Positions 1 through 6,473 of a stretch of 37,220 nt of DNA are shown here, one piece after another (positions within the stretch are counted from its first letter, which is position 1; each line of letters begins with the position of its first letter). The notes under the pieces were generated by a model that was not told where the DNA came from, did no database searches, and worked only from the letters and a program-made list of their open reading frames with translations. Made by a program: the position numbers and the translations under genes. Origin of the DNA: a virus. The DNA lies in IMG/VR virus record IMGVR_UViG_3300009104_000055, positions 1 through 37,220 of that record; one strand, 5' to 3'.

Positions 1-57
1 ATTGAGATCTTCCCCATCGCCCTCCGAGATCAGGATCCGGCTTGCTACTGTGGCTCG

Positions 58-70
58 TAGCGTTACGCTA
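58..70. promoter_or_regulatory. Small dyad just before the first gene
   Basis: TAGCG-TTA-CGCTA is a perfect 5-bp inverted repeat with a 3-base centre, ending 5 nt before the first ATG. No Shine-Dalgarno sequence lies in that gap. It could be an operator or a weak hairpin, or chance. Seen directly; the role is unknown. Confidence 0.3.
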
Positions 71-75
71 TATAC

Positions 76-411
76 ATGAATGACGATCCGTACCCACTGC
101 AATTCAAATTCACGCGCCCACGTAGGTGTAGGCGCAAGCCCCGTGGCGCAGGGCGACGCATAAGCGTTCCGCGTAAGCCCGTTATGGCGCTACCTGATAC
201 AAAGGCCGATAGGGCTAAATGGGTCACTGAAAGGCTAGATGCTATGCGTTCTGACGGATGGACCTATCGCGCCATTGCTTGGCGTATGGGTACCACCATT
301 GAAGCGCTGCGCACGTATAGGCGCGCACTGGTGTTGGCTCCGCGCTTGTTTTGCTACTTTCTAGAGATGCTCAAAGGGCGGAAACCACCACGGAAGCGTA
401 AGTGTAAGTAA
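76..411 (+). CDS. Basic HTH-like small protein
   Basis: Encodes 111 aa, very rich in Arg and Lys at both ends. Residues about 60-85 (DGWTYRAIAWRMGTT then a basic helix) look like a helix-turn-helix that would bind DNA. No ribosome binding site is seen before this ATG. An internal Met at residue 37 (position 184) is an alternative start and also lacks one. If the genome is circular, this gene would follow the portal module in the same direction, which would make it one candidate for the otherwise missing small terminase. A regulator is equally possible. Function is inferred only from the HTH pattern. Confidence 0.55.
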   Translation: MNDDPYPLQFKFTRPRRCRRKPRGAGRRISVPRKPVMALPDTKADRAKWVTERLDAMRSDGWTYRAIAWRMGTTIEALRTYRRALVLAPRLFCYFLEMLKGRKPPRKRKCK

Positions 412-460
412 AATATTTTTCGTGGTGCTGCTCTCCATTCTACCAACTATTTACATCATT

Positions 461-506
461 GATTAAAATAATCGCTTGACGGGGTTTGGGGCGCCGTGCC
501 TATAAT
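461..506 (+). promoter_or_regulatory. Sigma70-like early promoter with upstream dyad
   Basis: The -35 is TTGACG at 476-481 and the -10 is a perfect TATAAT at 501-506. The 19-bp spacer is longer than the ideal 17. Transcription would start near 513. A dyad GATTA-AAA-TAATC at 461-473 abuts the -35 and could bind a regulator or act as an AT-rich upstream element. This is the best promoter match seen in the window, and it points toward the run of early genes that ends at 5634. Confidence 0.7.
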
Positions 507-512
507 CCTAGC

Positions 513-790
513 GGGTTGACCAACGGGTTGGCCTGGGGAAGCGTTTGAAAATTTGAACCGCTGGGACGAGCCGCAAGTGAATGTTGCACGTGTCGAGCCA
601 CTGCCAAACCGCAGTAGGTTCCACACAACCCACGCCACATGCGGAGCCAGCTAAATGGGTGGTAAAGCCCATTCAGAGCATTTCAAAACTCTGAGATTCA
701 ATCAACAACCGGTCGCTAACTGAGTTACCGCGGTTGCTTCCTTTGTTGTTGGTTGGATTCATTGGGATTTGAAAACTAAATAGGAGCGAC
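513..790 (+). ncRNA. Structured 5' leader / candidate ncRNA
   Basis: Between the promoter and the ATG at 796 there are about 280 untranslated nt with several clear helices: ACTGC/GCAGT at 600-615; AATGGG/CCCATT at 654-673; TCAGAG/CTCTGA at 673-694; and a long helix of 695-709 with 745-759 (15 pairs, three of them G-U), capped by CGGT/ACCG at 710-713 and 727-730. An alternative pairing, CAACCG 706-711 with CGGTTG 731-736, excludes the long helix, so two states are possible. Base pairing is seen directly. Whether this is a regulatory leader, a separate small RNA or a processing signal is inference. Confidence 0.5.
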
Positions 791-795
791 AACAC

Positions 796-1017
796 ATGGA
801 CGACGATTACTACGTAGGCAGGACAATCTGCGGCTGCGGCGAGGAGTTTAGCGATAACGTTGAGTATACATACACCAAGTGCCGGGTGTGCGACGGCCGT
901 GGCGAGGTGTGGTCAGTCGGGTGTGGCGACGGAACACGAACCTGCAACAACTGCGACGGCGCTGGGTACGAAGTAAAGGAGCGCCCGTGTCGTTCACACA
1001 TAAACGCACCGGCATAG
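796..1017 (+). CDS. Small DnaJ-type zinc-finger protein
   Basis: Encodes 73 aa. It has two copies of the CxxCxGxG motif of the DnaJ cysteine-rich domain: CRVCDGRG at residues 29-36 and CNNCDGAG at 50-57. An extra CGC at 12-14 may join the zinc site. Two such motifs form one zinc site in DnaJ. The J domain and substrate-binding domain are absent, so this is a lone zinc module and not a co-chaperone in the usual sense. Starts at ATG with AGGAGC 10 nt upstream, in the recurring AGGAGCGACAAC context. The stop overlaps the start of the first covarying hairpin element. Confidence 0.75.
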   Translation: MDDDYYVGRTICGCGEEFSDNVEYTYTKCRVCDGRGEVWSVGCGDGTRTCNNCDGAGYEVKERPCRSHINAPA

Positions 1018-1085
1018 CGTATCAATCGGGACCCATGAGCCTTTCATGGGTCCTAGTTGACACACTAACCAGGAGCGACAACATG
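1016..1085 (+). promoter_or_regulatory. Covarying leader hairpin element, copy 1
   Basis: A 70-nt element covers the gap before the 187-aa gene. It has a 13-nt left flank, a perfect 10-bp stem GGACCCATGA/TCATGGGTCC (1029-1038 with 1044-1053, 5-nt loop), then a right flank through the ribosome binding site and ATG. Copy 2 at 1658-1727 has the same length and flanks but a different, fully compensated stem. Confidence 0.8.
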
Positions 1086-1646
1086 AGCACAGCAATCTAT
1101 CGTATATTTCTTGGCACCATAAGCCACGCGACAATGCGGCCGCAGGATCTAATTCCTACATTCTTGCGGCAACTGGAGCGCATCTGCAAAGAAGACTACA
1201 CCAAAGCCCTAGGGCACCTGGAACGCGAGGTAGCATACCAAATTAGCGGTACAGGCATTGACGACGATCACCCATGGTGGCAATCGGAAGAATGCGCATG
1301 GTTCCTCAATGAGGTGTTGTGGGATGCACTAGATAGCTGGGCCCCAGAGGGTTGCTACTTTGGAGCCATTGAGGGTGACGGATCGGACTTTGGCTTCTGG
1401 TCTCTGAATACCAACATTCAACGCATAAACAGTGGCAAGGTAATGGTCTACGCGTTCCCTGGCGGTTATCCAATGTACTACCTGACTCAGGATGACAGCG
1501 TTTTGTGTCCGCAGTGCGTTGAAGAAAACCAGGACGAATGCAGCGATAGTAGCGACCCAAAATGGTACGTGGAATCGCACGGTATCAACTACGAAAATAA
1601 CTCAATGCACTGTGACGAATGCAGTAAACAAATTGAGTGCGCCTAG
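1083..1646 (+). CDS. Early protein with C-terminal zinc ribbon
   Basis: Encodes 187 aa. The ATG at 1083 is chosen because AGGAGCGACAAC precedes it and the reading frame upstream overlaps the previous gene. The middle (about 91-106) has a Gly/Asp-rich stretch, YFGAIEGDGSDFGFW. The C-terminus carries CPQC at 142-145 and CDEC at 177-180, a four-cysteine zinc ribbon. I do not recognise a named family; Cys pairs of this kind recur in the neighbouring early proteins and suggest small binding or adaptor proteins. It is preceded and followed by the two copies of the covarying hairpin element, so its expression is probably tied to that element. Confidence 0.75.
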   Translation: MSTAIYRIFLGTISHATMRPQDLIPTFLRQLERICKEDYTKALGHLEREVAYQISGTGIDDDHPWWQSEECAWFLNEVLWDALDSWAPEGCYFGAIEGDGSDFGFWSLNTNIQRINSGKVMVYAFPGGYPMYYLTQDDSVLCPQCVEENQDECSDSSDPKWYVESHGINYENNSMHCDECSKQIECA

Positions 1647-1657
1647 CGACAACGGTT

Positions 1658-1727
1658 AGCGTATCAATCGGGACGCCCAACGCGCTTGGGCGTCCTAGTG
1701 GACTCACTAAACAGGAGCGACAACATG
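1658..1727 (+). promoter_or_regulatory. Covarying leader hairpin element, copy 2
   Basis: Second copy, exactly 642 nt from copy 1 at every landmark. Its stem is GGACGCCCAA/TTGGGCGTCC (1671-1680 with 1686-1695, 5-nt loop). Four of ten stem positions differ from copy 1 and all four are compensated on the other arm, while the loop is unrelated. The right flank runs into AGGAGCGACAACATG, identical to copy 1. Confidence 0.8.
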
Positions 1728-1991
1728 GGCAAAAAAATCGAAATGATCACCGCGGCCGTTGAGATTCACGCGTGCTTTGATCGAGCCGGGGTTGAGGAAT
1801 GGTTTGAAAACCGAATTAGTGACGAAGAACCCGAGGACGCGCGCATATACAGGCAACGTACTTATGATTTCTTGTCGGTCGTTGGCGACAGTGAAAACTT
1901 AAACATGTACCTGAGCAACGGCGGCGCGTTTTCTGACTACAACGTAGATGAGGATGAATACTTTGAACACTGCTTTGAAGAGTTCCAATAG
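1725..1991 (+). CDS. Acidic small early protein
   Basis: Encodes 88 aa from the ATG at 1725, which follows AGGAGCGACAAC within hairpin element copy 2. The protein is strongly acidic, especially the last 20 residues (Asp/Glu with aromatic residues). It has no cysteine pairs and no membrane segment. Acidic, small early phage proteins often mimic DNA or bind host enzymes, but nothing here identifies a target, so the function is unknown. An upstream in-frame ATG at 1686 lies inside the hairpin and lacks a ribosome binding site. Confidence 0.7.
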   Translation: MGKKIEMITAAVEIHACFDRAGVEEWFENRISDEEPEDARIYRQRTYDFLSVVGDSENLNMYLSNGGAFSDYNVDEDEYFEHCFEEFQ

Positions 1992-2013
1992 GCTCTAAAA
2001 GCGTAGCCGGTGG

Positions 2014-2031
2014 GGTCAACTTCGGTTGGCC
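2014..2031 (+). promoter_or_regulatory. UUCG-tetraloop hairpin in intergenic leader
   Basis: GGTCAAC-TTCG-GTTGGCC forms a 7-bp stem (one G-U pair) closed by a canonical C(UUCG)G tetraloop. It lies in the gap before the 132-aa gene and is preceded by AGCGTA and followed by a CTTACTAAC stretch, loosely like the flanks of the two covarying elements. There is no following U-run, so it is unlikely to be a simple terminator. Confidence 0.6.
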
Positions 2032-2069
2032 TTACTAACTAACCTTTTAGACTCGGAGAATAACAACCA

Positions 2070-2468
2070 ATGAGATTCACATTACCAAAATCCATCCACA
2101 GTAACGCTAAAAACCTGGGCACTGACAAGGAAATGGTACGGGCCTTGTCGGTAATCGTAAACACTAAAAACGGACCCAAAGAGGTAGCGACCGTGCGCTG
2201 GTACATGGGACGTTCGTCGCGCGCGTCTGTGGTTCACTGCTCAATATGGCTGAAGGCCAAAGGCATGGGCATGATTGGCGGCCACGATACGGCAGGTGGG
2301 TGGGGCTACTGTAAAAAATCCGCTGCATTTGCTGGCGCACTGTCAAGCGCTGGCGTTGACGTATCGGAAAGCGCGAACGGTCGCGGCATGTCGGTAGTCC
2401 GCGAGCAATTGTTAGCGCTCACAAAGGCGCTGGGCTACAGCGGGCGACCGCTTGTAATTGAGCACTAA
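2070..2468 (+). CDS. Early protein of unknown function, 132 aa
   Basis: Encodes a moderately basic soluble protein. A Gly-rich central part (about residues 70-84, including GGWGYCKKSAA) followed by two predicted helices, and a C-terminal stretch ending in LVIEH, look like a compact folded domain. I do not recognise the family. The start has CGGAG 12 nt upstream in the recurring early context (purine-rich site followed by AACAAC). It sits between two hairpin-containing gaps in the early run. Confidence 0.7.
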   Translation: MRFTLPKSIHSNAKNLGTDKEMVRALSVIVNTKNGPKEVATVRWYMGRSSRASVVHCSIWLKAKGMGMIGGHDTAGGWGYCKKSAAFAGALSSAGVDVSESANGRGMSVVREQLLALTKALGYSGRPLVIEH

Positions 2469-2488
2469 ACAACAGCATTGCAACTGAC

Positions 2489-2509
2489 GGCGGATGATTT
2501 CAATCCGCC
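2489..2509 (+). promoter_or_regulatory. Intergenic hairpin
   Basis: GGCGGAT-GATTTCA-ATCCGCC is a perfect 7-bp stem with a 7-nt loop, in the gap before the 70-aa gene and about 30 nt upstream of its ribosome binding site. There is no U-run right after it. It belongs to the series of hairpins that mark most gaps in this early region. Confidence 0.55.
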
Positions 2510-2556
2510 CGACGTTAGAACGCTTTTGTTTTCAATGACTTAGGAGGATAACGACA

Positions 2557-2769
2557 ATGAATATCATTAAGAAAGCGGCGGCGGCTGTCGCGGCGGCTGG
2601 GTTCACCCCTTGCGCGGCGTCATCTTTTGAGACCGCTGATCGCGCGTTTTCTTTCTCTGTTGAGTCCGTGAGCGGTCGCGCGGAGTCTGGCCCGGCGGTT
2701 ACCGTTGAGGTGTTCAGGGCAACCGGCGATGTTTTCATCAACAACAAACAACTAACCAAGAGAGGATAA
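2557..2769 (+). CDS. Small early protein with Ala-rich N-terminus
   Basis: Encodes 70 aa. The first 20 residues (Lys-Lys then an alanine run) resemble a short signal-like segment ending near AAGFTPCAAS, but the hydrophobic core is only small residues, so export is uncertain. The rest is polar with alternating Val/Phe, suggesting beta strands. AGGAGGATAACGACA provides a strong ribosome binding site. Its stop is 5 nt before the next ATG, and that gap holds part of the next AACAACAATG initiation context, so the two genes are probably translated from one message. Function unknown. Confidence 0.6.
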   Translation: MNIIKKAAAAVAAAGFTPCAASSFETADRAFSFSVESVSGRAESGPAVTVEVFRATGDVFINNKQLTKRG

Positions 2770-2774
2770 CAACA

Positions 2775-3314
2775 ATGATTGTATTCAAATTAACAAAGCC
2801 GACAGAGTTTACCGACCGTGGCTTTCAGACCGCCAGCGCTTGGCGCAAAATACTGGTTCCCGCCGGAACTTATGTTGGTGAAAAGAGCACCCGCTCAAAC
2901 AATTCATGGTCGTTCAGACTAGACGGCACGTGTAGCGCTGACTACTTTGAAAACAGGCTCTTTAACCACACCAGCGCATCAATTGACCAGATGAAAGGCC
3001 AGCCGTGCGTGTATTTTCTGCACATCTACGGTTGGCAATTGGACCCGATTGTAGGCAAGGGGCCGCAATTCGCATCATATGACAACACGAAACCCCTGTA
3101 CGAGGGCGGATCATTTGAAAGAAAAAAGGTGGACGACTTCGATTGTTACGGTTGCGGCAAGGCCGTAACGGGCGCGGACGTAGAGCAAGCGCAGGCCCAA
3201 GGGCTTAACCTTATCGCGGCCCACCTTGATCCGAGTTGTTACGAGTGCGCAGAAGAGTTTCGTTATGAAGAATTCAAAAGAGCAAACGGGTTTGGGTATT
3301 ACCGGAACCGATAA
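2775..3314 (+). CDS. Early protein with C-terminal zinc motif
   Basis: Encodes 179 aa. Residues 1-110 look like a beta-rich domain with several Trp/Tyr. The C-terminal part has CYGC at 124-127 and a second cluster of His150, Cys155 and Cys158, consistent with a treble-clef or ribbon zinc site. AGAGGATAACAACA precedes the ATG. No catalytic motif is visible. It is one of five small genes in this module with paired cysteines. I do not recognise the family. Confidence 0.75.
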   Translation: MIVFKLTKPTEFTDRGFQTASAWRKILVPAGTYVGEKSTRSNNSWSFRLDGTCSADYFENRLFNHTSASIDQMKGQPCVYFLHIYGWQLDPIVGKGPQFASYDNTKPLYEGGSFERKKVDDFDCYGCGKAVTGADVEQAQAQGLNLIAAHLDPSCYECAEEFRYEEFKRANGFGYYRNR

Positions 3315-3326
3315 CACACACAACCA

Positions 3327-3341
3327 AAGACGGGGCGTCTT
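3327..3341 (+). promoter_or_regulatory. Short hairpin next to the shared repeat
   Basis: AAGACG-GGG-CGTCTT is a perfect 6-bp stem. The same AAGACG arm could instead pair with CGTCTT at 3363-3368, at the end of the 27-bp shared repeat, so two exclusive hairpins are possible upstream of the 97-aa gene. Confidence 0.45.
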
Positions 3342-3368
3342 GTCAGATATTGGCGGTGCTCGCGTCTT
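3342..3368. repeat. 27-bp shared leader repeat, copy 1
   Basis: Identical over 27 bp to 9386-9412, and similar for a few bases on each side (TCT before, CC after). It begins GTCAGATATTGGCGG and ends CGCGTCTT. It lies 23 nt upstream of the ATG of the 97-aa gene. Both copies are outside genes and both precede plus-strand genes, so a shared regulatory site is more likely than a leftover of duplication. Confidence 0.75.
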
Positions 3369-3391
3369 TCCAGCTAACAAGAAGGTGAAAC

Positions 3392-3685
3392 ATGAAAAGA
3401 CTAACGAAACCACAAGCGCTCAGCTTATCGGCTATCCACGACTACCGCGGCGGCGTATGCCCGTCGTCCGAATGGACCAACGGCAGCGGGCGTTACATAA
3501 CACGGCGCACAGTGCCGCCCTACTGCCAGCTAATGACAATAGACGAGGCGATGGATCTACCTGGCGTCGTTGGCAAGGCCGCGAGACGGTTACACAGAGA
3601 GCGGCCGCGAGTTGAGAAGGTTGTGGCCGTGGTTGATTTGCGGGCGGCACGCCGGGCGCTGAAGGCCGCGCAGGGCAACAACTAA
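3392..3685 (+). CDS. Basic small early protein, 97 aa
   Basis: Encodes 97 aa with a polar N-terminal half (two cysteines, several Tyr) and a strongly basic helical C-terminal half rich in Arg, Ala and Val. The C-terminal helix could bind nucleic acid. AAGAAGGTGAAAC gives a ribosome binding site 8-9 nt before the ATG. The upstream gap carries the 27-bp shared repeat and its alternative hairpin. An overlapping longer reading frame from 3226 in another frame has no ribosome binding site and was not chosen. Function unknown. Confidence 0.65.
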   Translation: MKRLTKPQALSLSAIHDYRGGVCPSSEWTNGSGRYITRRTVPPYCQLMTIDEAMDLPGVVGKAARRLHRERPRVEKVVAVVDLRAARRALKAAQGNN

Positions 3686-3696
3686 CCCACTGATGA

Positions 3697-3714
3697 GGCC
3701 CCCGGCAGGGGGCC
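3697..3714 (+). terminator. GC-rich hairpin, possible terminator or processing site
   Basis: GGCCCCC-GGCA-GGGGGCC is a perfect 7-bp all-GC stem, 12 nt after the stop of the 97-aa gene. What follows (CGAAACGCC...) has no U-run, so intrinsic termination would be poor. It may pause polymerase, protect the RNA end or be cleaved by RNase III. Confidence 0.4.
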
Positions 3715-3769
3715 GAAACGCCCCCCGGGCGTCTGGAATGCAACCCACAACCAAAGAGGATAACAACAC

Positions 3770-4051
3770 GTGAAAGTCAACCTTACTAAGACAATTCAAA
3801 AGCAATCCAGGCAGGACACCATCACCGAATACACCCACTCGCGCGGCGGATATATCCGCGTGGCCATCGACGCCCAACCGCTTGATAGCCCCTATCTTTT
3901 CGCCAGGGTTGGTAACCCTAAATTCTACTGTGAAGATGAGGCGGGCTATGTGTATTCATTCACTGGCCTTGTCAACGGAACAAGCAACGCACCAAAGTAC
4001 ATGAAAGCGCTCGCCCGTGCGGTTGAGCGTGACCTTAAGGAGGGTAGCTAA
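3770..4051 (+). CDS. Small early protein, GTG start
   Basis: Encodes 93 aa starting with GTG; AGAGGATAACAACAC is directly upstream and no ATG fits. The protein is mixed alpha/beta, with a central hydrophobic patch (SPYLFARVGNPKFYCEDEAG) and a basic C-terminal helix (MKALARAVERDLKEG). No known motif. The next gene starts 2 nt after the stop, and its ribosome binding site AGGAGGG lies inside the end of this gene, so the pair is translationally coupled. Confidence 0.65.
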   Translation: MKVNLTKTIQKQSRQDTITEYTHSRGGYIRVAIDAQPLDSPYLFARVGNPKFYCEDEAGYVYSFTGLVNGTSNAPKYMKALARAVERDLKEGS

Positions 4052-4053
4052 CA

Positions 4054-4215
4054 ATGGACATCAACATCCACGATGCGATCTCAATCAACATCCGCCAGGT
4101 TGAGAACTGCGTGATTATCGAGGTCGAGACCGTGAACAACGGCGCTCAAGAGGTATCCATCTTTTGGGAGGTCGAGTCTGATCGGGTGGTCGTCATGTCC
4201 CCAAAGGGGGTGTAG
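4054..4215 (+). CDS. Acidic microprotein, 53 aa
   Basis: A 53-codon gene with ATG at 4054 and a strong AGGAGGG 11-16 nt upstream, inside the end of the preceding gene. The sequence alternates hydrophobic and polar residues (ISINIRQ, CVIIEVET, EVSIFWEVE, RVVVMS), which predicts an all-beta fold of four or five strands. It is acidic and lacks membrane segments. Coupling to both neighbours supports it as real. Function unknown. Confidence 0.6.
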   Translation: MDINIHDAISINIRQVENCVIIEVETVNNGAQEVSIFWEVESDRVVVMSPKGV

Positions 4216-4217
4216 CG

Positions 4218-4391
4218 GTGGCGATGGCTTACTGTAAAACCTGCGGCGCGGTGGGTAACTTTACCCTCTGCCCCGGCAGACTAGAACCCGATGAAATGGA
4301 ATTCAACGTGCGCCACGTGGTGGTATTCGACGAACCAACAAACAACACAACAAAGGGAACGGGTGACGACGCAAAAAAGAGCATAGACTGA
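4218..4391 (+). CDS. Small Cys-containing protein, GTG start
   Basis: Encodes 57 aa. The GTG at 4218 is preferred because AAAGGGGGT lies 6-7 nt upstream; the ATG at 4224 is a two-codon shorter alternative. The N-terminus has CKTC and a third Cys at residue 18 (CPG), half or three quarters of a zinc knuckle. The C-terminus is charged and probably disordered. It follows the 53-aa gene by 2 nt. Function unknown; the cysteine pattern matches the theme of this module. Confidence 0.5.
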   Translation: MAMAYCKTCGAVGNFTLCPGRLEPDEMEFNVRHVVVFDEPTNNTTKGTGDDAKKSID

Positions 4392-4399
4392 CAAGGAAC

Positions 4400-4431
4400 G
4401 GGGGCCACACAATGCGCTTTGCGTGACCCCC
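4400..4431 (+). promoter_or_regulatory. Imperfect intergenic hairpin
   Basis: GGGGG 4400-4404 pairs with CCCCC 4427-4431, and after one mismatch CAC 4406-4408 pairs with GTG 4423-4425. It lies 9 nt after the stop of the 57-aa gene. What follows (TAGAGCATAAC) is not a U-run. Possible attenuator or processing hairpin. Confidence 0.4.
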
Positions 4432-4480
4432 TAGAGCATAACAACTTGACAACAATAACAACATACAAGGACGCATGGCA

Positions 4481-4552
4481 ATGTTTAGATATCGCAACCT
4501 AGCAGCCCGTTACCACCGTCGCCTTAGAAGGCTTCGGAGAAGCTGCAAATAA
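4481..4552 (+). CDS. Possible Arg-rich micropeptide, 23 aa
   Basis: ATG at 4481 with AAGGA about 9 nt upstream opens a 23-codon frame that is mostly Arg, Tyr, His and Leu (RYHRRLRRLRR). The spacing is good and the composition is striking, but a frame this short can occur by chance. If real it would be a strongly basic amphipathic helix that binds RNA, DNA or membranes. The next gene starts about 60 nt later. Confidence 0.3.
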   Translation: MFRYRNLAARYHRRLRRLRRSCK

Positions 4553-4611
4553 CTTTGACATCAACGACTAACAACACAACAATAAAAGCCTAATCAATGG
4601 AGCTAATGACC

Positions 4612-5055
4612 ATGAAAAATTATCTAGTCTTTTTTACAGCAATTCCCGGTATCGGGTCGCGCACTGCAAACATTGTGAAACTCGAAGCGCCAAGCGATGA
4701 CTTGGCTCGCCTTCGAATGAAAGATCTCGTAAAGCACCCCAACGAAATCACCGGGCTGGCTCGCGTGACGTATGATCTTGAAACCAACGCGGAGGTCTAC
4801 CGCATCATCCCGCAGCACTCACCGACAACCCGCGACGTGCTTGAGGGCTACAGTGAGATTGGGCGTGCCGCCACTGAGGCCAGGGAAATGGCCACCGACA
4901 TTAAGCTTATGTGCGAGGGCGGGCTATCGCTTGGCGGGCTGGCGAAACACTGCGACGAGATCATCAGAAACAGCAACCGCATTTTGGAGTTTGCATCAGG
5001 GGCTGCGGCGTTGGCACTGGCGGCGGAGGATCCCCAGGATGAATTACCTCTCTGA
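4612..5055 (+). CDS. Early protein of unknown function, 147 aa
   Basis: Encodes 147 aa. The ATG at 4612 is chosen because GGAG is 9 nt upstream; ATGs at 4597 and 4606 are in frame but badly spaced. The first 60 residues look like a beta-alpha domain. Residues 80-135 form long amphipathic helices, and the tail ends EDPQDELPL. No known motif. The last 17 nt overlap the next gene, which points to coupled expression. Function unknown. Confidence 0.65.
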   Translation: MKNYLVFFTAIPGIGSRTANIVKLEAPSDDLARLRMKDLVKHPNEITGLARVTYDLETNAEVYRIIPQHSPTTRDVLEGYSEIGRAATEAREMATDIKLMCEGGLSLGGLAKHCDEIIRNSNRILEFASGAAALALAAEDPQDELPL

Positions 5056-5335
5056 GATTTCAAACCGCGACGTGATGTCACAAATGACGCGAGCGCAACA
5101 ACTTGCAGCCATCATAGAGGCCGCAGGCTGGACACCGCAGCAATCGGCTGACCGGTTGGCGGTAGACAGCGTGCAGCAGATGTACACTTACAAGTACCAG
5201 GCCGCACACGATGACTTCATCTCAACCGATGGTGCTAAAGGCCAAAAGCTCAACTCAAAGCGAGGTAGCCAACCCTCCAAGACCATGGTCAAGTTAGCGT
5301 TGCTTGTTGCTGCGGTCGAGGGCGTGGGCTTTTAG
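5039..5335 (+). CDS. Possible HTH protein, 98 aa
   Basis: Encodes 98 aa. The start overlaps the previous stop by 17 nt; GGAGG sits 9 nt upstream of the ATG inside the previous gene. Residues 16-45 (QMTRAQQLAAIIEAAGWTPQ and the following helix) resemble the helix-turn-helix of the Cro/XRE class, and the end has another helix (KTMVKLALLVAAVEG) as in those folds. The loop between the two is unusually long and polar. It could be a small repressor or early regulator. The stop shares one base with the GTG of the next gene. Confidence 0.5.
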   Translation: MNYLSEISNRDVMSQMTRAQQLAAIIEAAGWTPQQSADRLAVDSVQQMYTYKYQAAHDDFISTDGAKGQKLNSKRGSQPSKTMVKLALLVAAVEGVGF

Positions 5336-5634
5336 TGTCGCAGAGCAATCAAGTCAAGTGGCAGTGCGACATCTGCAAGCGCACCACCCACACCGACTCA
5401 TCAAAAATTGCCACCGGCTGGCGGCGTATGAAATTCTATCACGCTGAGCAAGATGCGGAGCCCGCTTCTTACGATGACGTGTGCGACTCTTGTACGTCTG
5501 CCATAGTCGGGGTCCTATCAACGAGGAAACGTGCGGAGAAGGGCCGTCATATCGAGCCTGAGCCGCAACAACACCCACCCACCCCAGCGCAGGCGGATGC
5601 CATCGCGCGATTCAACCTAAGAAAATCAAGCTAA
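5335..5634 (+). CDS. Small zinc-ribbon protein, GTG start
   Basis: Encodes 99 aa starting with GTG, whose first base is the last base of the upstream stop. CDICK at 11-15 and CDSC at 50-53 give a four-Cys zinc ribbon with a 35-residue insert; the tail is Pro-rich and disordered. Last gene of the early run. Its TAA overlaps the TAG of the annealase gene on the other strand, leaving no room for a terminator between the two converging operons. Confidence 0.7.
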   Translation: MSQSNQVKWQCDICKRTTHTDSSKIATGWRRMKFYHAEQDAEPASYDDVCDSCTSAIVGVLSTRKRAEKGRHIEPEPQQHPPTPAQADAIARFNLRKSS

Positions 5635-6473
5635 AAGGGAATGTCGTCTTGACTCGGGGGCTGCGGCCCTGGCGGGCCATCAAACTGCTCGACTTCGATG
5701 ACCGGCTCCTCCGGTGAGGGCGTGATTGGCGAGATGACCGGCTTGGGCCCGCTGTTCCTCCACTGCACCCAGTCACACGCCTTGTCTTTGCACTTGAACA
5801 CCGGGCCGCGCCAACCCGTGGCTGACTTCTCGCGATTGTCCCACACCCCACCACCACACTTGCCACACTTATCAACGGCTGCGGCCACCGCCTCAACTCT
5901 TTTTGCGCGGTCAGCCGCAGGATCAACCCAGCCGCCACCGCCCTGTATACCGGTGTTAAAGTTGGGTGTCATGCGCTCGCCCTTTCGGCGGTGATGGTCT
6001 TCACGTGTGTCAAAGTGAATTGGATCCTCGCTATCGTACAGGTGAAGCGCAACGCCAAGATGAGTGGCCGCCTTCTTTAGGGCGTCTGTGGCCGCAGCCT
6101 TCCAATCGCTGCCGATGTCCACCGCGCCCGCATGGTTCGGGTTTGTGGCGCACTCTTCGCATGTTCGCTTCTTACACTTGCGGTACTTGACATCGGCGCA
6201 GCCAATGCCGTCATGCTCTACCGTTGTCTCTTCCCTGAACCCGTGTTCGTTTTGCCAGGCTGTGTTGGCGGAGAAGCGCACAACCACACACAACGTGTCA
6301 CCCTCTCGCCACCGCTCAACCACCCGGTGCGACCAGCCCGCTTCAAACGCATCGTTGAGCCGCTGTATAACCCGGTGACCCTCGACGTAGGTCCACTTGT
6401 GGTACGGATGGATCGAACACTCGCCCGCCGAAAACCGCTTCTCTAATACCTCTCTAATCTCACATGGAATCAT
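5631..6473 (-). CDS. Rad52-like single-strand annealing protein with SSB-type tip
   Basis: Encodes 280 aa. The ATG at 6473 has AGGAG 8 nt upstream. Residues 20-148 match the Rad52/Rad22 DNA-binding core: HKWTYVEGHRVIQRLNDAF and later SDWKAAATDALKKAATHLG. Such proteins anneal complementary single strands in phage recombination. A Cys cluster at 100-108 may be an inserted zinc knuckle. A second zinc ribbon follows at C203, C206, C228 and C233. The last residues, PSQDDIPF, copy the acidic Phe-ending tip with which bacterial SSB recruits repair and replication proteins. No SSB gene is visible in the window. Last gene of the replication operon, next to a PD-(D/E)XK nuclease, as expected for a recombination module. 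Confidence 0.85.
   Translation of the reverse strand: MIPCEIREVLEKRFSAGECSIHPYHKWTYVEGHRVIQRLNDAFEAGWSHRVVERWREGDTLCVVVRFSANTAWQNEHGFREETTVEHDGIGCADVKYRKCKKRTCEECATNPNHAGAVDIGSDWKAAATDALKKAATHLGVALHLYDSEDPIHFDTREDHHRRKGERMTPNFNTGIQGGGGWVDPAADRAKRVEAVAAAVDKCGKCGGGVWDNREKSATGWRGPVFKCKDKACDWVQWRNSGPKPVISPITPSPEEPVIEVEQFDGPPGPQPPSQDDIPF

What the first reader, a model, noticed from the sequence alone, without database searches (positions are those of the whole stretch)
1016..1727. Two leader hairpins with full compensatory change
The elements at 1016-1085 and 1658-1727 have equal length, an identical 13-nt left flank and a nearly identical right flank through the ribosome binding site. The 10-bp stems differ at four positions, and all four are matched on the opposite arm; the loops are unrelated. 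Within one genome this is classic covariation evidence for selection on RNA structure rather than sequence. The hairpin lies about 17 nt before the ribosome binding site. Inference: a translation-control or RNase-processing element used for early genes, possibly read by a phage or host RNA-binding protein through the constant flanks.
Basis: seen in the sequence. Interest (0 to 1): 0.75.

Follow-up and report, generated by a model that had tools for sequence, protein, structure and literature searches.

The report
Paired RNA hairpins between phage genes
Between early genes of an uncultivated bacterial virus there is a short RNA hairpin whose letters change in matched pairs so that its shape is kept; it most likely marks where the long viral message is cut or insulated so that each gene is expressed separately.

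Summary
Two 70-nt elements (1016-1085, 1658-1727) share an 18-nt left flank, a near-identical right flank through the Shine-Dalgarno (SD) sequence, and 10-bp stems that differ at four pairs, all compensated. Two relatives add copies: G025 (orthologous to copy 2) and G001 (before a different gene). Over four copies 94.3% of cells pair and 7 pairs change on both sides (0/500 shuffles). Of 121 places with the same flank pair, only these four have 10/10 stem pairs. The element is larger than reported: a variable upper stem, an invariant non-Watson-Crick core (AUCG/UAGU) and a lower stem at or just after the upstream stop codon. SD masking is not conserved; no U-tract or promoter was found. Between the window and G025 the leaders stay in place while unrelated genes are swapped behind them, which argues for a generic intercistronic module and against gene-specific autoregulation. 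Best reading: a T7-like RNA processing or insulation hairpin (cleavage unproven). Position resembles Cluster K ESAS and shuffling resembles T4 PeSLs, but defining features of both failed here. No Rfam, INPHARED or genome-collection homologue was found. It is a small, real, new structured-RNA family of modest interest.

The parts
1014..1068 (+). copy 1 of the hairpin: lower stem 1014-1019/1063-1068, constant core 1023-1028/1054-1059, upper stem 1029-1038/1044-1053, loop 1039-1043
   Evidence: CM R1 89.8 bits
1656..1710 (+). copy 2 of the hairpin: lower stem 1656-1661/1705-1710, core 1665-1670/1696-1701, upper stem 1671-1680/1686-1695, loop 1681-1685
   Evidence: CM R1 91.8 bits
1071..1083 (+). 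start-associated repeat AGGAGCGACAACA containing the SD of the 1083 gene
   Evidence: 3 exact copies in the window, all at gene starts
1713..1725 (+). start-associated repeat AGGAGCGACAACA containing the SD of the 1725 gene
782..794 (+). third copy of AGGAGCGACAACA, before the 796 gene, without this hairpin family (a different long leader precedes it)
796..1017 (+). 73-aa early gene (weak DnaJ zinc-finger similarity); its stop codon UAG (1015-1017) lies inside the lower stem of copy 1
1083..1646 (+). 187-aa early gene behind copy 1; phrog_29605 and phrog_18452, function unknown; no counterpart among the early genes of G025
1725..1991 (+). 88-aa early gene behind copy 2; 92% identical protein behind copy 3 in G025
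1992..2069 (+). a different two-storey intercistronic hairpin (UUCG loop), conserved in G025 in front of an unrelated gene

Best explanation
It is an intercistronic RNA hairpin module of the phage's early polycistronic mRNA, placed between the stop codon of one gene and the ribosome site of the next. Shown here: helices conserved by covariation around an invariant non-Watson-Crick core (5'-CAAUCG/5'-UAGUUG), and leaders that stay in place while the genes behind them are exchanged. Inferred: a host double-strand-specific endoribonuclease (RNase III is the prime candidate) recognises the two-storey helix and cuts at or near the core, as at the T7 early sites. The upstream message would then end in a protective hairpin, and the downstream message would start with a short leader carrying the SD. 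Even without cleavage the same hairpin could insulate neighbouring cistrons and stabilise ends.
For: Covariation in four copies from three phages: 7 pairs with two-sided change, 94.3% paired, 0/500 shuffles, collapse on sliding. Only the four true copies among 121 flank pairs have the stem. The whole element folds as one interrupted hairpin in copies 1, 3 and 4. It lies at or just after stop codons and before the SD in the early operon only; the CM finds no other copy in the genome. The leaders are generic: alignment blocks of the window and G025 end near start codons and begin near gene ends, with unrelated genes between them. T7 intercistronic stretches that hold known RNase III sites fold into a comparable shape in the same place, with a 9-13 bp upper stem, an internal loop and a lower stem; [quoted passage not shown] No promoter or terminator match lies at either copy.
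Against: No cleavage data exist and the host is unknown (actinobacterial by capsid and portal relatives at 22-30% identity). RNase III substrates have no diagnostic sequence, so resemblance in shape is weak evidence. In copy 2 the lower stem is not in the predicted minimum-energy fold. An invariant core sequence is more than a shape-reading nuclease strictly needs and would also suit a specific binding protein.
Confidence: 0.45

Rival explanations
1. A passive insulator or stabiliser: the hairpin is not cut but blocks 3' exonucleases, keeps the downstream SD from pairing with upstream coding sequence and separates terminating from initiating ribosomes.
For: Position between stop codon and SD in the four copies. 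Leaders are independent of the gene behind them. Variable stem and loop sequence is what a purely structural role predicts.
Against: Does not explain the invariant core CAAUCG/UAGUUG with its conserved U.G, C.A and G.U positions. In copy 1 the SD is predicted almost wholly paired with sequence flanking the hairpin.
Confidence: 0.22
2. A binding site for a phage or host RNA-binding protein that controls translation or stability of the early genes as a set, reading the constant core and flanks.
For: Core constant across genomes whose other early genes differ widely, while stem and loop drift. T4 gene 43 has a regulatory hairpin about 40 nt upstream of its start codon (PMC3014915).
Against: No candidate binding protein identified. 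The T4 gene 43 operator has a conserved loop and a part that overlaps the ribosome site (PMC3014915); here loops are unrelated and SD masking is not conserved.
Confidence: 0.15
3. Primarily a recombination boundary (like T4 PeSL cassettes): short repeated leaders provide homology for swapping early genes; the hairpin is secondary.
For: Similarity between the window and G025 stops near start codons and resumes at the element or gene end, with unrelated genes between. Two copies in the window flank the 187-aa gene that G025 lacks.
Against: Recombination alone does not require covarying stems; a stem that diverges between copies shortens the shared homology. Only three genomes compared.
Confidence: 0.1
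4. An inverted repeat read as double-stranded DNA (operator or promoter), or a palindrome kept perfect by a mutational process (template switching between arms), with no RNA role.
For: Cluster K ESAS inverted repeats in the same place were judged more likely to be DNA-protein sites (PMC3203893). Template switching can produce matched changes in both arms (general knowledge).
Against: The varying arms lack a common sequence for a DNA-binding protein. Copies 3 and 4 keep pairing through G.U wobbles (3 upper-stem cells, none as C.A), which neither DNA palindromes nor template switching favour. No promoter match at either copy.
Confidence: 0.08

Closest known systems
RNase III processing sites (R sites) of the bacteriophage T7 early mRNA
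   Same: Intercistronic hairpins in the early operon, placed before the SD of the next gene, with an upper stem of 9-13 bp, an internal loop and a lower stem (PMC4858673).
   Different: No sequence homology; smaller, nearly symmetric internal loop; constant core sequence; cleavage not shown.
SAS/ESAS of Cluster K mycobacteriophages
   Same: Repeated start-associated SD motif with, at some genes, an inverted repeat just upstream, restricted to non-structural genes (PMC3203893).
   Different: In ESAS the repeat arms are constant, the spacer varies and the authors found little support for RNA pairing; in Anaya the arms recur as TTGACATGCATACAG. Here the arms vary with compensation and only the core is constant. 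The 13-bp SAS is not enriched in the window.
PeSL cassettes of T4-like phages (promoter early stem-loop)
   Same: Intergenic stem-loops at which genes are shuffled between related phages (cited in PMC4503421; primary papers not held).
   Different: PeSLs are composite promoter-terminator motifs (title of a paper cited in PMC4503421); neither was found here. Here the hairpin is joined to an SD motif.
Phage translational operators such as the T4 gene 43 hairpin
   Same: Hairpin upstream of a start codon in an early mRNA (PMC3014915).
   Different: That operator is gene-specific with a conserved loop; here loops are unrelated and the copies precede unrelated genes.

Membership tests
T7-type RNase III processing site | double-helical hairpin of roughly two turns with an internal loop in an intercistronic region | tested here: met
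   22 pairs in two stems around a non-canonical core, between stop codon and SD; copy 2 lower stem weak
T7-type RNase III processing site | cleavage by RNase III | not testable with these tools
   no RNA-end data for this uncultivated phage
T7-type RNase III processing site | common descent with T7 sites | tested here: not met
   CM R1 finds nothing in the T7 early region L242
Cluster K SAS/ESAS | 13-bp SAS GGGATAGGAGCCC at gene starts | tested here: not met
   8 loose matches against 10.5 expected, none at an early gene start; a different repeat AGGAGCGACAACA is present
Cluster K SAS/ESAS | 17-bp inverted repeats of constant sequence with variable spacer | tested here: not met
   arms vary with compensation; the constant parts are the core and flanks; CM finds nothing in Anaya 33000-60000
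T4 PeSL | early promoter joined to the stem-loop | tested here: not met
   no sigma-70-type match at either copy; phage-specific promoters not covered
T4 PeSL | stem-loop acts as a terminator | tested here: not met
   no T run after the stem; neither copy is in the + strand terminator list
T4 PeSL | gene exchange at the cassette | tested here: met
   window vs G025 block boundaries, one pair of genomes only
any Rfam family | match to a covariance model | tested here: not met
   no match up to E = 1 in window 1-6000
SD-sequestering riboregulator | SD paired within the conserved structure | tested here: not met
   SD unpaired 0.02/0.29/0.80/0.46 in copies 1-4; not conserved

The most novel reading that the evidence does not exclude
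A previously undescribed phage RNA module that joins a self-diverging hairpin with a fixed non-Watson-Crick core to a start-associated SD repeat. It serves as a portable plug: any early gene inserted between two such leaders gains both an RNA processing or insulation site and a ribosome site. Stems would diverge between copies so that neighbouring hairpins do not mispair or recombine with each other.
Probability: 0.15. Interest if true: 0.6.

Novelty: new variant of a known kind. Interest (0 to 1): 0.42.

Why it matters
It is a clean case of covariation within and between a few related phage genomes for an RNA element in no curated family. It suggests that early-gene leaders, rather than the genes, are the fixed units of this part of the genome. 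If cleavage is shown, it would extend T7-style early mRNA processing to an unrelated and probably actinobacterial phage group, and it gives a structure-based contrast to the still unexplained SAS/ESAS leaders of mycobacteriophages. The scope is small: four copies in three genomes.

Tried and rejected
More copies were sought by flank pattern in IMG/VR (only G001 for the strict pattern). A flank pattern in 84,980 genomes gave 4 hits, none forming the stem. Searches by the upstream 111-aa protein, the 88-aa protein, capsid, helicase and terminase led only to G001 and G025 as carriers. Nothing in INPHARED by DNA and no CM match in sampled regions of Jasmine, Shocker, ctLwi270, Anaya or T7. Rejected: intrinsic terminator (no T run), promoter (TTGACA in copy 1 is not kept in copy 2 and no second hexamer matched), conserved SD masking. 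Strand preference over the whole element is modest (11 G.U against 9 C.A cells on the + strand), clear only in the upper stem (3 against 0). Protein structure prediction was not relevant to an RNA element. One genome search by phylum failed on its centre argument and was not repeated.

Full report
WHAT WAS CHECKED. The window is an uncultivated phage record of 37,220 bases. The two elements are exactly as described: equal length, left flank identical over 18 nt (2 matches, 0.01 expected), right flank with 3 differences in 32 nt, and 10-bp stems that differ at four pairs, all compensated. The two sites are the strongest local folds among 220 sliding windows of the early region.

MORE COPIES. 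A flank-plus-stem scan of the fetched relatives found two more copies. One is in G025 (IMG/VR 3300032132_000420; capsid 94% over the matched part), L113 3818-3872, orthologous to copy 2. The other is in G001 (3300030419_004862; capsid 81%), L109 3316-3234 minus, before a different gene and after the homologue of the window 2070-2468 gene. The copies were aligned as A2. A covariance model built from them scores them at 78-92 bits; apart from the palindromic opposite strand of the same sites (25-36 bits) the next hit is at most 18.5 bits. No further copy was found in 26 records (the window and its capsid relatives), but many of these are fragments, so absence is weak evidence.

IS THE STEM REAL? 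Three tests. First, pair counts on A2: 94.3% of cells pair, 7 pairs change on both sides, covariation 0.386 against 0.181 shuffled, 0/500 shuffles as high; sliding by one column drops pairing to 49% or less. With four related sequences the shuffle figure is not a probability, but the slide control keeps relatedness. Second, an empirical control: there are 121 distinct places with CAATCG...TAGT[T/G]G in the loci held; the four copies have 10/10 stem pairs and all others have 1-8. Third, copies 3 and 4 keep pairing through G.U wobbles in the upper stem, which is unexpected for a DNA palindrome.

ANATOMY. Upper stem 10 bp (11 with a wobble), sequence free except for a mostly constant base. Loop 5-6 nt, unrelated between copies. 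Core 5'-CAAUCG with 5'-UAGUUG (UAGUGG in copy 2), in which the U.G, C.A and G.U positions are invariant. Lower stem of 6 pairs with an internal loop above it, better in copies 3 and 4 than in the window copies, where C.A mismatches occur. The stop codon of the upstream gene is in the lower stem in copies 1, 3 and 4; in copy 2 it is 10 nt upstream. The SD follows 17 nt after the upper stem in the window copies. SD accessibility differs widely between copies, so SD masking is not the conserved property. In copy 1 only, the SD is predicted to pair with the end of the upstream gene, which would make that start depend on upstream translation (inference).

CONTEXT. The early region reads rightwards; most long late genes read leftwards. 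Window and G025 align in blocks 1-794, 1656-2069, 3316-3420, 3675-3768 and from 4051 on. Blocks end 1-2 nt from start codons (one runs 28 nt into a gene) and begin 0-10 nt from gene ends. Genes between blocks are unrelated. Thus the leader at 1992-2069 precedes the 132-aa gene in the window but a 294-aa gene in G025; the G001 homologues of both genes (70% and 89% identical) do not carry that leader. Leaders therefore act independently of the gene that follows. This rests mainly on one pair of genomes.

MECHANISM. A generic, early, intercistronic hairpin between stop codon and SD is what T7 uses for RNase III processing; T7 stretches holding the R1, R1.1 and R1.3 sites (site positions from general knowledge) fold to a comparable shape, and T7 early mRNA is cut at five sites (PMC4858673). 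I give processing by a host double-strand-specific RNase 0.45, passive insulation 0.22, a specific RNA-binding protein 0.15, a mainly recombinational role 0.10, and a DNA or mutational explanation 0.08. The cleavage step is inferred, not shown.

COMPARISON WITH KNOWN KINDS. Cluster K SAS/ESAS share the layout, but ESAS arms are constant and do not support RNA pairing (PMC3203893; Anaya checked), and the SAS motif is not enriched here. T4 PeSLs share gene exchange at stem-loops, but neither a promoter nor a terminator was found here (the primary papers were not held). Rfam has no match. The element is filed as a new variant of a known kind: an intercistronic hairpin leader.

HOST. Capsid and portal relatives in named phages infect Arthrobacter, Microbacterium and Cellulosimicrobium at 22-30% identity, so an actinobacterial host is likely but unproven.

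Noticed in passing
window 515-795: Long, highly conserved 5' leader of the early operon (about 87-90% identical in G025, not seen in G001) with a strong hairpin at about 695-770, possibly a further RNA element.
   Followed up: partly
window 1992-2069: A different two-storey hairpin with a UUCG loop, conserved in G025 with a C.A to U.G change, standing before unrelated genes in the two phages.
   Followed up: partly
window 2543-2556, 2761-2774, 3755-3768: A second start-associated repeat, GAGGATAACAACA, at three early gene starts, distinct from AGGAGCGACAACA; G001 uses yet another (GGGAGTAACTAAC).
   Followed up: no
window 4400-4431: Strong hairpin GGGGGCCACACAATGCGCTTTGCGTGACCCCC, conserved in G025, in another early intergenic region.
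   Followed up: no
L109 1767-2684 and L113 4233-5114: A phrog_1617 protein 89% identical between G001 and G025 but absent from the window early region: early genes are exchanged among relatives independently of the structural genes.
   Followed up: partly
L260 (Anaya 33000-60000): Several ESAS arms read TTGACATGCATACAG with TACTGTATGCAT opposite, which looks promoter-like (TTGACA then TACTGT).
   Followed up: no
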